Below, in pieces: positions 3,725 through 59,900 of a stretch of 64,000 nucleotides of DNA (position 1 is the first letter of the stretch; each line of letters opens with the position of its first letter). The position numbers and the translations under genes were made by a program. This DNA comes from Halalkalicoccus tibetensis. Its GTDB lineage: Archaea > Halobacteriota > Halobacteria > Halobacteriales > Halalkalicoccaceae. The notes beneath the pieces were generated by a model that had not been told where the DNA came from, did no database searches, and worked only from the letters and a program-made list of their open reading frames with translations. The DNA is taken from the NCBI RefSeq assembly GCF_037996645.1, contig NZ_JBBMXV010000003.1, positions 62,001-126,000 of the forward strand, given 5' to 3'.

Positions 3725-3864
3725 GGCACGCACTGGCGTGCGTGCCTCGCCCTTTTCATTTCCGGCCAGGCCCGCCTAGTCGCGGCGCGCGATCACGCGC
3801 CGCTTCCGAGGACGCCAACCCTACCCCGTCCCGCTCGCGTGGCTGCCGAAAGTGGCAGCCACGC
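3725..3864. repeat. Cluster of three perfect long-stem hairpins in the ileS-udg spacer
   Basis: Three inverted repeats stand in line: 3725-3746 (8-bp stem GGCACGCA, loop CTGGCG), 3782-3803 (8-bp stem GCGGCGCG, loop CGATCA) and 3837-3864 (11-bp stem GCGTGGCTGCC, loop GAAAGT). All have perfect stems and 6-nt loops. The spacer separates the divergent ileS and glycosylase genes, so ordinary terminators are not expected here. They could be structured leader RNA, operator sites, or palindromic elements of the kind seen at the 3' end of hemB. No start codon with clear coding potential lies in the cluster. Confidence 0.7.
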
Positions 3865-4590: not shown

Positions 4591-5016
4591 ATGGCAAGCA
4601 TCTTCAGCCAGATCATCGACGGCGACATCCCCGCGCGGGTCGTCCACGAGGACGAGACGGCGTTCGCGTTTCTCGACGCCAACCCACTGGCACCGGGCCA
4701 CACCCTCGTCATCCCCAGAGAGGAGTACGAACGACTGAACGACGTCCCCGAGGACGTCGCCGCGGACCTCTACGCGACGATCCACGAGCTGATCCCCGCG
4801 GTGGAGGAGGCCGTCGACGCCCCCGCCACGACGGTCGCGTTCAACAACGGCGAGGCCGCCGGCCAGGAGGTCCCCCACGTCCACTGTCACATCGTCCCCC
4901 GGTTCGAGGGCGACGGCGGCGGCCCGATCCACGCCGCCGCGGGCGAGTCCCCGAACCTCGACGACGACGAGCTGGACGATATTGCCGAGAGAATCTCGGC
5001 GAACAGCCAGGCATAG
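4591..5016 (+). CDS. HIT family protein (histidine triad nucleotide hydrolase)
   Basis: Small nucleotide-binding hydrolase of the HIT superfamily, 141 aa; members cleave dinucleoside polyphosphates or nucleoside phosphoramidates. The triad HVHCHIVPR is present near residue 97, along with the N-terminal IFSQIIDGDIPA and the NNGEAAGQEVPH segment typical of the family. The ATG at 4591 gives the canonical start MASIF. The substrate cannot be deduced. The last 12 codons (DIAERISANSQA) contain a perfect 7-3-7 hairpin at 4984-5000 and are repeated in diverged form immediately after the stop codon (see next entry). Confidence 0.93.
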   Translation: MASIFSQIIDGDIPARVVHEDETAFAFLDANPLAPGHTLVIPREEYERLNDVPEDVAADLYATIHELIPAVEEAVDAPATTVAFNNGEAAGQEVPHVHCHIVPRFEGDGGGPIHAAAGESPNLDDDELDDIAERISANSQA

Positions 5017-5022
5017 TCCGGC

Positions 5023-5061
5023 CATATCGCGAAGAGGATCTCCGCGAACAATCAGGCGTAG
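5023..5061 (+). pseudogene. Diverged second copy of the HIT gene 3' end
   Basis: Read in the HIT frame after its stop, 5023-5061 encodes HIAKRISANNQA plus a TAG, matching DIAERISANSQA plus TAG of the real gene exactly 45 bp upstream. Of 13 aligned codons five differ synonymously (for example ATT/ATC, GCC/GCG, AGA/AGG, TCG/TCC, GCA/GCG) and three change the residue. The segment has no start codon and cannot be translated except by readthrough of the first TAG. It looks like the 3' end of a related allele left behind by recombination. Confidence 0.75.
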
Positions 5062-5139
5062 GCCCCTTCCATTACTGACGTCGTGACTGGCGGTTCGAAG
5101 GGGGCATCCCCAAATTGATTTGCCTTTTCTAAAGGTAGA

Positions 5140-39536: not shown

Positions 39537-40586
39537 ATGGACATCACGAAGCGCCCGCGCCGACTGCGGAGCGACGGCGTGCGCCCGCTGGTCAGCGAGA
39601 CCGCCCTTTCCCCCTCGGACCTGATCGCGCCCGTCTTCGTCGACGCGACCGCCGACGAGCGCGTGCCGATCGAGTCGATGCCCGGCCATGAGCGCGTGCC
39701 CGTCGAGGGGATCGCAGAGCGGGTGCGGGAAGTACGGGAAACCGGCGTCGAGGCCGTCATGCTGTTCGGGATCCCCGAGGAGAAGGACGAGCGGGGGACC
39801 CGCGCGTGGGCCGACAACGGCGTCGTCCAGCGTGCGCTGCGGCGGATCTCCGAGGAGACCGACGCCTACGTCATCACCGACCTCTGTTTCTGCGAGTACA
39901 CCTCCCACGGCCACTGCGGGATCCTCACGAGCGAAGCGAGGGAGGGCTGGGAAGAACTCCGCTCTTCCGACGGTATCGAGGAGGGAGCAGAGGAGGACCC
40001 CCACATGACCGTCGACAACGACGCGACGCTCGAACTCATCGAGCGCACCGCCCTCTCGCAGGCCGAGGCCGGCGCGGACATGATCGCGCCCAGCGGGATG
40101 ATGGACGGGATGGTCGCGACCATTCGGGACACGCTGGATCGCGAGGGGTTCACCGAGGTGCCGATCATGAGCTACGCCGTGAAGTACGAGTCGGCCTTCT
40201 ACGGACCGTTCCGGGACGCAGCCGACGGCGCACCCAGCTTCGGGGATCGTCGACACTACCAGATGGACCCCGCCAACCGACGGGAAGCGATCCGGGAGGC
40301 CCGCCTCGACGCCGAGCAGGGCGCCGACGCCCTGATGGTCAAGCCCGCGCTGCCCTATCTCGATATCGTCCGGGACGTCCGGGAGACGACCGACCTGCCG
40401 GTCGCCGCCTACAACGTCTCCGGGGAGTACGCGATGCTCCACGCCGCCGCGGGGAAGGGCTGGCTCGACCTCGAGGCGGTGGCCGCCGAGTCGCTGCTCT
40501 CGATCAAGCGCGCGGGTGCGGACCTGATCCTGACGTATTTCGCCGAAAGTGTTGCTGAGACACTTTCGGCTGACCATCGGACGTAG
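39537..40586 (+). CDS. hemB: Porphobilinogen synthase (5-aminolevulinate dehydratase)
   Basis: Condenses two 5-aminolevulinates to porphobilinogen, the second step from glutamyl-tRNA. The 349-aa protein has the zinc-site cysteines LCFCEYTSHGHC and the two active-site lysines in YAVKYESAF and LMVKPALPYLDI. There is a loop of about 25 residues after HGHCGILTS (AREGWEELRSSDG and on) that looks inserted. The C-terminus FAESVAETLSADHRT runs about four residues beyond the normal end and stops at a TAG lying partly in the loop of a hairpin. Two further diverged copies of the C-terminal codons follow in frame (next entry). Confidence 0.95.
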   Translation: MDITKRPRRLRSDGVRPLVSETALSPSDLIAPVFVDATADERVPIESMPGHERVPVEGIAERVREVRETGVEAVMLFGIPEEKDERGTRAWADNGVVQRALRRISEETDAYVITDLCFCEYTSHGHCGILTSEAREGWEELRSSDGIEEGAEEDPHMTVDNDATLELIERTALSQAEAGADMIAPSGMMDGMVATIRDTLDREGFTEVPIMSYAVKYESAFYGPFRDAADGAPSFGDRRHYQMDPANRREAIREARLDAEQGADALMVKPALPYLDIVRDVRETTDLPVAAYNVSGEYAMLHAAAGKGWLDLEAVAAESLLSIKRAGADLILTYFAESVAETLSADHRT

Positions 40587-40688
40587 TCCGATGACTTCGC
40601 GGAAAGCATCACGGGCGAGCTTTCCGCGGACAGCCGGATGCAATCCGGCGACTTCGCCGAGGAGGTCGCGAGCGAGCTCCCCGGCTGA
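40587..40688 (+). pseudogene. Two extra in-frame copies of the hemB C-terminal codons, with covarying hairpins
   Basis: Units of 57 bp begin at 40539 (inside hemB), 40596 and 40653. They encode FAESVAETLSAD, FAESITGELSAD and FAEEVASELPG, the last ended by TGA at 40686. Each of the first two has two hairpins: a long one in the helix codons (11-bp stem 40542-40570; 10-bp stem 40598-40628) and a 7-3-7 spacer hairpin (40576-40592, 40633-40649). Stem bases differ between units in compensating pairs. Because of TAG at 40584 these copies are untranslated unless it is read through. Confidence 0.8.
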
Positions 40689-40854
40689 TCGGGCCGACAG
40701 CGTCCGTTTCGCGGGCGCGTCCGGGGTATCGCGCCGTCGGGGCGCCCGCCGAGCGCCGGCCGACGTCCGGTCGGTTTCCCGGCAACGATTGTCGCGGAAC
40801 CGGACGAAGAACGACCTTATATAGCTATTATCCCATTGTGTATCGTACGTTTGT

Positions 40855-56769: not shown

Positions 56770-56908
56770 TCACATGAAGTCCGCGATCCCGCTCTGTTTG
56801 TCCCTGTGCACCTTTTTCCACCTCGGGATTCGCACTACGTGCGAACCACTCGGTGCAAAAATCCCCTCCAAAAAGGCCCTTCACTCGTTACACTCGCCAC
56901 GGTAGAAC
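56770..56908 (-). repeat. Diverged second copy of the polC 3' end plus hairpin spacer
   Basis: Read on the minus strand, 56770-56802 encodes DKQSGIADFM and a TGA, repeating the last codons of polC (NKQSGIADFM, TGA at 56909) 139 bp downstream. Ser, Gly and Ile codons differ synonymously (TCG/AGC, GGT/GGG, ATT/ATC) and one residue changes. The spacer holds a 7-3-7 hairpin TTCGCAC-TAC-GTGCGAA (56829-56845). The copy is out of frame with polC and has no start. It repeats a PCNA-binding motif, QSGIADFM. Confidence 0.75.
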
Positions 56909-59900
56909 TCACATGAAGTCCGCAATACCCGACTGTTTGTTCTTGTCGTTCTCGAAGATGCTCTCCAGCGAGGTGTCGAGGATCTTCAGGCGCTGTTTGG
57001 TGTACTCCCGGCAGCCGTACTCGTCGGCGACCTGGATCGCGGTGTTCATGTACTTGTTCACCGAGCCCTGGTGGACGGTCAGGTTCACGTTCCCGCCACA
57101 GTCCCGGCAGTCGCCCGAGAGCGGCATTCGCCGGTATTTCTTCCCGCAGGAGAGACAGCGCGTCTCCTGGCTGGAGAACGCCCTCAGATTGCCGATCAGG
57201 TCGGGCAGGAAGTGGTACTCGATGACGCGTTCGGCGACGTCCGTCTCGTCGACCGCCCGGAGCTTTCTCGCCAGCTCGAGCTGGGCGTCCATCTTCTCCA
57301 TCATCGAGCCGAGCGTCTTGTACGCCGAGAGGTCCGGCCCGAGCGCGATGTCCGAGGTGTCGTGGGTGTGGGCGAAACCGCGGTACTGGTCGTCGGTACC
57401 CACCGATTCCTCGGCGATCGTCACGTCGACCTCGCCGGGATCAGCCATCTCCAGGGTGGCCTCGTAGAACTCCAGGGGGTACTGCTCGACGACGTCCATG
57501 TTGTGGGCCTCGTCGTCGATCTCCGCCGGGTCGATCCGCGAGGACATGACCAATGGAGCGTCCATCTGCCCCCCGCGCTTGTCGGGCAGGTACTCCTTCG
57601 AGAAGTTGAGCAGGCCGTCCATCAGCAGCATCACGCAGTCCTCGTCCCCGTCACACTGGCCGGTGAAGAGGTCGTTCGCGACCAGCGTGTGTGTGTCCGC
57701 GACCGTTACCGAGTACGTGTGATCGGTATCGGATTCCACGATCGAGACGTCGACGACCTCGTCGAGCCAGACCTCGCCGCCGTCGCCGAACAGCCGTTGT
57801 GGGCGGGCGTCGATCGACTCGACGACCTCCGAGAGCGTGGCCGATTTCCGGTCGAGGTCGAACCCGATCCGTTCGGCGAACCGGACGGCGTTTTCGGAGG
57901 TGATCTTCAGGACCCACGACTCGAACTCCGGGGTCCCGTCGTAGAACTCGGCGACGGGTCCGGTCTCGATCCGCCGGGTCTCAGTGTAGGTCTTGGACGT
58001 GATCCCGAACCGTTTCAATGCGGCGATCAGGTCCTCCTTGAGCTCGTCACTGATCGTGTGTGCCCGGATATCGAGGCGGTCGTTCGAGACGCTACCATCG
58101 CCGCTGAAGTACGCGGCGAGATACGCCGCAAGGACGCCATCGCTCCCGCCGAGAACGGGGTCGGGAACCCGTTTGTCCTCCGCGATCGATCCGGCATCGA
58201 GCACGTCGGCGAACAGCGCGGCGACCAGCCGGCTAGAGACGGTGACCTTCCACTCGTTCTCCTCGTAGGCCGTGGTCCCGAGGGCTTCCTCGAAGGTGTC
58301 GATGATCCGCCTTCGAACTGGATCATCGGGCGTACAGATCGTCGTCTGATAGAAACACCCGTCCTCGCGTCTGGTGAACCCCTCGGCCGCGTAGTAGCCG
58401 AGCAGCGTTCCCACCTCCTCGTCGATGCGGAGAATGCGGTCGACCGAAACGGAATCGCGCTTGACGCCGAGCTCGACGTCGTCGGGGAGGCGTTCGACGA
58501 TCGTCTCCTCGTCGAAGAGGGCAAGGAGAACCGCCGCCGGAACGCTATCGCGGCTCACCCAGTTGTAGACGGTCGAGTCAGCGACGTCCAGGCGATCCGC
58601 GACGCGGTCGAGATAGGTGTCGCCGGAGGTGGCCTCGTCGAACAGCCCGCGGACCCGATCGGAGCCCAACCCTCGGATCACGAGGTCCTCGTTCGGGATC
58701 GCGTCGCCCGCGAGCAGTTCCGCGAGCAGGTCGATTTCGCTCTCCCGCCCCTCCATCGGAAGCCGTTTCGGGCTCGGAACCGTATCGCCGGGTTCGAGCT
58801 CGCTCGCCGCGATCCGTTCGACCTCTCCGTTCCATCGGCGCATCGAGTGGTCGGGCGTGACGCGGAGCCGTCGACCGCTTCGCGTCTCGATCTCGAGCAG
58901 GTGATCGGGAGCGGGATGTTTCGAGACCGCCTCGATCGGGCGCGTCGTCACCGAACCGTCGCCGGCGATCGACGGAACCGATAGCTCCCCGTCGAGCTCC
59001 TCGACGAGCGTTCCGAAGTCGTCGGTTCGTGGATCCTCGAGGTGCTCCTCGACGAGGTCCTCGATCGAGCCGTGCCGCCAGCGATCGCCCTCCTCCGCGT
59101 ACCAGACTTTCGTCGACGGATGGAAGCAGTTCCTCCGCTTCGACGCGTGGAAATACGGATGAGCATAACCCACAGCGGCGCTCGTGAAGCCGACCACGCG
59201 ACCCACCACGGCGGCGCTGGTGTGGGGCGCCATCCCGAAGACGAGCTCGCCGACGAGCTCCTCGCGTTCGGAGACGTCGTAGAAGGCCTCGAGGCCGTAG
59301 TAGCGCTCCAGGAGGTCGTCGACGAAGTCCGCCGTCTTCAGCATGTGCTCGGCCGCGCCGTCCGAGAGGACGACGTCCTGGACCTTGAGCTCGACCAGCT
59401 GGTCGGCGTGTTCGAGGGGCTCGCCTCGGACGTCCTCGTGATAGCCCAGCCGGCGGAACTCGTCGACCGGGACGTCGAGCTCCTCGGGGCGGACGCTCGT
59501 GACGGGCAGGTCGGTCATGTCGTAGCGGACGGTGCCGTCCTTGAACGCGCTGACCCCGTGTTTCGCCCGGAGGACCCCCTTCTCCATGGGCTCGGGCGTC
59601 TTGTGCGAGGAAGTCAGCCCCTTGACCCCCTTGAGCGTCTCGAACGAGCCTCCGCGCTCGCCGAGGCCCGAGAGCGCGTCGTGATAGATCCCGTCGAGGT
59701 CGATCGTTCGGCGCTCGACGTTCGTTCCCTCGGCCTCGCAGCGCGGACACCCCACGCGGCCGGCCTCGTCGGGCTCGAGCTCGCGCCCGCAGTCGGGACA
59801 CTCGTAATGGGGGAAGGTGTTTCCCCCGCAGTCGGGACAGTCCCCGCGGAAGGTGCGGATTTCGCAGTCCTCGCACTCCCGGCGGCCGATGCTCACCTCG

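What the first reader, a model, noticed from the sequence alone, without database searches (positions are those of the whole stretch)
4978..5061. HIT gene 3' end is echoed downstream by a synonymously diverged copy
Directly seen: the last 12 codons and stop of the HIT gene (DIAERISANSQA) recur 45 bp on as HIAKRISANNQA and TAG. Five codon changes are synonymous and three are not, which is what two selected alleles would look like, not a decaying duplicate. Inference: the second copy is the 3' end of a related allele left by homeologous recombination, or a scar of an element that inserted at the 3' end and restored it. With hemB and polC this makes three cases in 64 kb.
Basis: partly seen in the sequence, partly recalled or inferred. 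Interest (0 to 1): 0.78.

Follow-up and report, generated by a model that had tools for sequence, protein, structure and literature searches.

The report
Hairpin insert repeated at gene end
The repeated gene ending is a tandem copy of a small DNA hairpin insert, part of a family that has been slipped in frame into many proteins across salt-loving archaea, and here its loop codon is a stop, so the insert itself ends the protein.

Summary
In detail: the last 12 codons plus stop of the HIT gene recur exactly 45 bp downstream, with 5 synonymous and 3 non-synonymous codon differences. The "two selected alleles" reading is wrong. The 45-bp unit is two mini-hairpins (17 nt, 5-nt spacer, 17 nt, then 6 nt) whose arms change together across seven congeneric species; 3 of the 5 synonymous changes are hairpin-pair changes. 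Copy number varies (four in one relative); about 80 HIT genes outside the genus lack it.

hemB in the same window carries the same thing. A covariance model built only from inserts in other genes finds exactly three sites in the window: HIT once, hemB twice. Elsewhere the element is an in-frame insert in unrelated proteins, with clean empty sites for prephenate dehydratase (39 bp) and an MBL-fold protein (45 bp). A related model hits 144 of 190 genomes of the order; the best hit in each of 30 genomes reads in the same frame (SRTQSGD-like). The loop codon is mostly CAG or GAG inside proteins, TAG in HIT and hemB.

The polC echo is a different event. The kind is known (Rickettsia, Wolbachia, Methanocaldococcus); I found no description of this haloarchaeal family. 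How it moves is unknown.

The parts
4591..5016 (+). HIT-domain protein gene; its last 13 codons (stop included) lie in unit 1
   Evidence: Pfam PF01230 E=4.7e-27; HIT genes outside the genus end normally
4978..5022 (+). unit 1 of the double-hairpin element (45 bp): hairpin A 4984-5000, spacer 5001-5005, hairpin B 5006-5022 with stop TAG 5014-5016 at its loop
   Evidence: R3 model built without HIT or hemB hits 4981-5028 at 27.8 bits, E=2.4e-5; covariation
5023..5067 (+). unit 2 (the 'echo'): hairpin A 5029-5045 with one mismatch, hairpin B 5051-5067 decayed on its 3' side, stop TAG 5059-5061
40542..40593 (+). hemB unit 1: hairpin A 40542-40570 (11-bp stem), hairpin B 40575-40593 CATCGGACGTAGTCCGATG with the hemB stop TAG 40584-40586
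   Evidence: R3 hit 40551-40598, E=1.8e-6; same hairpin B as HIT unit 2 of relative G004
40598..40649 (+). hemB unit 2, loop codon CAA (Gln; SRMQSGD, no stop): hairpins A 40598-40628 and B 40633-40649
   Evidence: R3 hit 40608-40655, E=1e-6; fold z-score -6.0 for 40510-40700
40650..40688 (+). displaced original hemB 3' end (DFAEEVASELPG*), still in frame with the gene
   Evidence: G006, G007 and G009 hemB end YFAEQVARDLPG*, YFAEEVAERL*, YFAEEIAERL*

Best explanation
The HIT echo is a tandem array of a protein-coding palindromic insertion element. The element is hairpin A (7-bp stem, 3-nt loop), a 5-nt spacer, hairpin B (near-constant NNCGGAC-GNA-GTCCGNN), then about 6 nt, so one unit is usually 45 bp or 15 codons and keeps the frame. 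Shown: it sits in frame as an insert in unrelated haloarchaeal proteins, in one orientation and frame in the loci examined; arms covary; in HIT and hemB the loop triplet reads TAG where other copies mostly read CAG or GAG; units are tandemly repeated; the old hemB end lies downstream in frame. Inferred: copies once read through, and a change in the loop codon (such as CAG to TAG) made the element end the protein, leaving the second unit or the old end as an untranslated echo. Inferred: arms stay complementary because hairpin formation in single-stranded DNA or RNA is selected or mechanistically re-templated, and the element spreads by an unidentified hairpin-recognising activity plus local tandem duplication.
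For: Seven congeneric genomes carry the unit at HIT, with 4 copies in G004; about 80 other HIT loci and sister genus G007 do not. Covariation at HIT: 10 of 16 pairs changed on both sides, 23 cells against 10.3 shuffled, slid controls 1-5 cells. Empty sites: PheA +39 bp in G000 and G002 only; MBL protein +45 bp in G005 and G006 only; hemB empty in G006, G007, G009. Independent model R3 (no HIT or hemB in training) finds HIT and hemB as the only significant sites in the window. R2 hits in 144/190 genomes, 56/66 genera; 30 of 30 best-per-genome loci read in the same forward frame although most other frames are open too. Past the hemB TAG the G000 frame stays open through a Gln-type unit to the old C-terminus; similar in G002 and G005. 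Named examples: merA of Natrinema zhouii, cobN of Natronococcus occultus.
Against: The HIT array of the window itself is partly decayed and does not fold better than shuffles (z -0.26), so a present RNA role there is not supported. HIT units share at most 28-34 of 48 positions with the inserts elsewhere, so membership rests on architecture, frame, hairpin B and the R3 score. A HIT empty site at nucleotide level is not as clean as for PheA or MBL because hairpin A overlaps codons common in HIT C-termini. No mobility has been seen directly; target duplications are not evident. R2 was trained partly on HIT and on coding copies, and the 30 loci are top hits, not a random sample. E-values of the models are rough.
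Confidence: 0.82

Rival explanations
1. Homeologous recombination: the second block is the 3' end of a related HIT allele left beside the resident one.
For: Unit 2 shares GAACAATCAGGCGTAG with unit 1 of G005; at polC the downstream copy does match relatives' own ends.
Against: Repeat period is exactly 45 bp in several species and there are 4 copies in G004; arms covary; the same unit occurs in unrelated genes.
Confidence: 0.04
2. A local tandem duplication of an ordinary HIT 3' end that happens to be palindromic, with no wider element; arm complementarity is kept by template switching between arms.
For: The unit sequence with HIT flanks is found only at HIT in each genome; tandem copies are adjacent and in register.
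Against: hemB carries a nearly identical hairpin B and spacer; R3 trained on other genes detects HIT.
Confidence: 0.1
3. The hairpins at HIT and hemB are transcription-termination or mRNA 3'-end signals kept by selection; the insert family is incidental. (Could also be a secondary role of the element.)
For: They straddle stop codons in seven species; hairpin arrays occur downstream of genes; a hairpin terminated 59% of transcripts in Haloferax volcanii (PMC7237163).
Against: No fold signal at HIT in the window; the same hairpins sit inside proteins.
Confidence: 0.15
4. Stop-codon read-through: the downstream units are translated as an extended C-terminus.
For: Frame is kept past the stop in hemB of G000, G002, G005 and in the HIT array of G004.
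Against: Elements are multiples of three and nearly stop-free in most frames, so open frames are expected; several HIT units each carry their own stop.
Confidence: 0.03

Closest known systems
Rickettsia palindromic elements (RPE) and Wolbachia equivalents
   Same: Palindromic DNA inserted in frame in unrelated protein-coding genes, giving a conserved extra peptide (as described in PMC10969869 and PMC2996958)
   Different: RPEs are about 150 bp; this one is 39-57 bp, two adjacent mini-hairpins mostly with 3-nt loops, in haloarchaea, and can carry the stop codon
Protein-coding palindromic repeats of Methanocaldococcus jannaschii
   Same: Archaeal precedent for in-frame palindromic coding inserts (cited in PMC2996958, its reference 49; original not read)
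   Different: Different archaeal lineage; sequence not compared here
PATE, MITE and SMR elements of Haloquadratum walsbyi
   Same: Short transposase-free haloarchaeal repeats; PATEs have palindromes and no target duplication, and a terminal-only form is 52 bp (PMC3119063)
   Different: Described as IS605-related mobile repeats; in the passages read, no in-frame coding inserts with a fixed frame. Origin of the present element from IS605 ends is untested
REP / GTAG-tagged palindromes and RAYT
   Same: Short palindromes, often downstream of genes, sometimes in arrays (PMC3733652)
   Different: No GTAG or CGTC tag at one end; here GTAG lies at the loop; top hits are intragenic; RAYT link untested
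PARCEL repeats
   Same: Palindromic, coding, tandem-capable units spread between genes
   Different: Reported as absent from archaeal genomes then available (PMC2996958); described as amphipathic repeats; sequence not compared here

Membership tests
Haloarchaeal 45-bp double-hairpin coding element (defined here) | 17-nt hairpin, 5-nt spacer, 17-nt hairpin architecture | tested here: met
   HIT units fit with no gap; hemB has a longer hairpin A (29 nt) giving a 57-bp unit
Haloarchaeal 45-bp double-hairpin coding element (defined here) | Detected by a model built without it | tested here: met
   R3: HIT E=2.4e-5, hemB 1e-6 and 1.8e-6, next best in window 0.25
Haloarchaeal 45-bp double-hairpin coding element (defined here) | Same reading frame, SRT-x-S[GD]D peptide | tested here: met
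   HIT G004 SANHRT*SDD, hemB SADHRT*SDD, others e.g. SADSRTQSGDD
Rickettsia-type protein-coding palindromic elements | In-frame insertion in unrelated genes with empty sites in orthologs | tested here: met
   PheA and MBL, hemB
Rickettsia-type protein-coding palindromic elements | Length about 150 bp and sequence relation to RPE families | tested here: not met
   Length only: insert is 39-45 bp by empty sites; sequence relation was not tested. So it works like an RPE but is not filed as one
GTAG/CGTC REP elements | GTAG or CGTC tetranucleotide at one end of the stem-loop | tested here: not met
   Unit flanks are GAYATY/GAC and spacers such as TGGCA and GAACA
GTAG/CGTC REP elements | Associated RAYT transposase | not tested
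IS605-derived PATE | Ends match near-terminal palindromes of a resident IS605-type transposon | not tested
   No transposon ends compared

The most novel reading that the evidence does not exclude
An order-wide, previously undescribed haloarchaeal mobile coding palindrome spreads in one frame and orientation into protein loops, is kept as a hairpin by selection or arm re-templating, and by a change of its loop codon (CAG to TAG) turns from an internal peptide insert into a new protein end, so it can rewrite C-termini of core genes such as hemB and HIT.
Probability: 0.45. Interest if true: 0.85.

Novelty: new variant of a known kind. Interest (0 to 1): 0.74.

Why it matters
Protein-coding palindromes have been reported mainly from intracellular bacteria and one methanogen. 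A family present in three quarters of sampled genomes of a whole archaeal order, with clean empty sites in conserved enzymes, gives many natural experiments: what moves such elements, why one frame is used, and how proteins tolerate the insert, in a group with good genetics. It also warns that apparent C-terminal divergence and 'alleles' in haloarchaeal genes can be hairpin elements, and suggests a simple route from insert to new stop codon.

Tried and rejected
A first alignment of units used wrong coordinates and was discarded. A structure-only scan for 17-5-17 hairpins with two mismatches was too noisy to use. The exact HIT unit pattern is not dispersed, which first suggested a purely local repeat; the model searches corrected this. 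RNA fold of the HIT array in the window is not significant. Rfam has no match. No copy in phage records at the limit used (a 20-residue query is weak). Literature searches for a haloarchaeal in-frame palindromic element found none; only open-licence papers are held, so absence is weak.

Full report
Observation. The last 12 codons and stop of the HIT gene (4978-5016) recur at 5023-5061, exactly 45 bp on, in the same frame. Five codon differences are synonymous and three are not. The match is beyond chance, and an echo scan of 391 rough gene calls from the window and a 400-kb stretch of the same genome found only polC and hemB clearly above re-paired controls (HIT itself was lost by the crude gene caller).

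What the repeat is. In the seven genomes of the same genus the HIT gene ends with the same kind of unit; G004 has four tandem units, each 45 bp, the last one degenerate. About 80 HIT loci from other haloarchaea and the sister-genus genome G007 end differently and lack it. Each unit holds two palindromes, e.g. GCCGAGA-GAA-TCTCGGC and GCCGGAC-GTA-GTCCGGC, and their arms change together: 10 of 16 pairs have two-sided changes, 23 cells against a shuffled mean of 10.3, and slid controls give 1 to 5 (one-unit-per-species version). In the window, codon changes GCC to GCG and TCG to TCC are one compensated base pair, ATT to ATC repairs a T-G pair, AGA to AGG is in a loop, and GCA to GCG touches the loop of hairpin B. 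So the synonymous pattern reflects hairpin pairing, not two protein-selected alleles.

hemB is the same thing. Window 40542-40649 has four hairpins in a row, folds far better than shuffles (z -6.0), and its stop codon lies in a hairpin CATCGGACGTAGTCCGATG identical to that of HIT unit 2 of G004. G006 and the sister genus have the empty site (YFAEQVARDLPG*, YFAEEVAERL*), while G005 has a 57-bp insert followed in frame by the old end FAEQVAETL*. In G000 the frame past the TAG runs through a second unit whose loop codon is CAA (Gln) and ends at the old terminus DFAEEVASELPG*. I infer that the array first read through and that a loop codon then became TAG.

A wider family. A model of hairpin B with flanks (R1, from HIT and hemB) and a simple pattern led to copies inside unrelated genes: a prephenate dehydratase, an aminotransferase, an MBL-fold protein, MutS, a tRNA synthetase and others, giving a peptide like SRT-[QE]-S-[GD]-D (gene names from reading the sequences; only HIT, TFB and the UDG neighbour were run against Pfam). 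Orthologs prove insertion: PheA gains 39 bp in G000 and G002 only; the MBL protein gains 45 bp in G005 and G006 only. A double-hairpin model (R2) reached E <= 1e-3 in 144 of 190 genomes and 56 of 66 genera of the order, up to 25 hits in one genome although at most 32 candidates per genome were scored. In the 30 loci examined, one best hit per genome, the insert always lies in an open frame in the same forward frame, although the insert is open in most other frames as well. Named cases are merA of Natrinema zhouii and cobN of Natronococcus occultus. A third model (R3) built from 21 inserts without any HIT or hemB sequence (one row is from a congener, in a different gene) finds in the whole window only hemB (twice) and HIT as significant sites. 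Arms in these inserts also covary, 47 two-sided cells against 16 shuffled; the rows were picked partly by pairing, so the percentage paired is inflated.

Intergenic arrays. The same genome has runs of hairpins with short spacers, up to ten in a row at C1:344256-344548, starting at the end of a gene; controls gave none of three or more. R2 and R3 match several, so these may be relatives of the coding element; this was not resolved.

polC. Only G000 has the echo. The downstream copy GACAAACAGAGCGGGATCGCGGACTTCATGTGA matches the own 3' end of G005 at 32 of 33 positions by my reading, while the actual gene end reads TCGGGTATT, nearer to G001. The segment between them holds a GTA-loop hairpin and T-runs. 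This fits replacement of the gene end by an incoming allele, and is not part of the HIT phenomenon.

Mechanism and limits. Shown: in-frame insertion, fixed frame in the examined loci, tandem copies, arm covariation, stop in the loop at HIT and hemB. Inferred: origin of the stop from a sense loop codon, mobility, and the reason for hairpin conservation (selection on a DNA or RNA hairpin, or arm re-templating during replication). The loops of hairpin B are mostly G-N-A, a type known (from my own knowledge) to form very stable DNA mini-hairpins; this hints at a single-stranded DNA intermediate but was not tested. No transposase link was tested. The HIT array of the window is partly decayed and shows no fold signal.

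Comparison. Rickettsia and Wolbachia palindromic elements and a Methanocaldococcus family are the known kind (PMC10969869; PMC2996958). The present family works like them, but is shorter, built of two mini-hairpins, spread over an archaeal order, and can supply the stop codon. PATE and SMR repeats of Haloquadratum (PMC3119063) are possible sources. A hairpin can terminate transcription in Haloferax (PMC7237163), so a secondary RNA role at gene ends is plausible.

Noticed in passing
56770-56802 (minus strand, with polC ending at 56909): polC 3' end is echoed by a copy whose codons match relatives' own ends, separated by about 105 bp with a GTA-loop hairpin; looks like an allele replacement and occurs only in this genome among the ten compared.
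   Followed up: partly
G000:C1:344256-344548 (L159:4256-4548): Ten consecutive hairpins with 0-4 nt spacers, starting at the 3' end of a gene (tail ENIEELA*), with repeated sub-blocks.
   Followed up: partly
G000:C1:22848-22946 (L143:2848-2946): Four-hairpin intergenic array (TGCCGGACTACGTCCGGCA and three others) downstream of a gene; similar arrays in G004 and G006.
   Followed up: partly
L292, L310, L123, L228 (MBL-fold protein): The same loop of the MBL-fold protein carries the insert in genomes of three different families, suggesting an insertion hot spot or transfer; G004 (L303) has it at another site of the same protein.
   Followed up: no
L116 (G005:C1:877148): Downstream of what looks like a tRNA gene the hairpin CCGGACGTAGTCCGG sits inside a larger inverted repeat of the tRNA 3' end.
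   Followed up: no
window 3725-3746 and 3837-3864: Two strong hairpins between the isoleucyl-tRNA synthetase-like gene and the uracil-DNA glycosylase-like gene.
   Followed up: no
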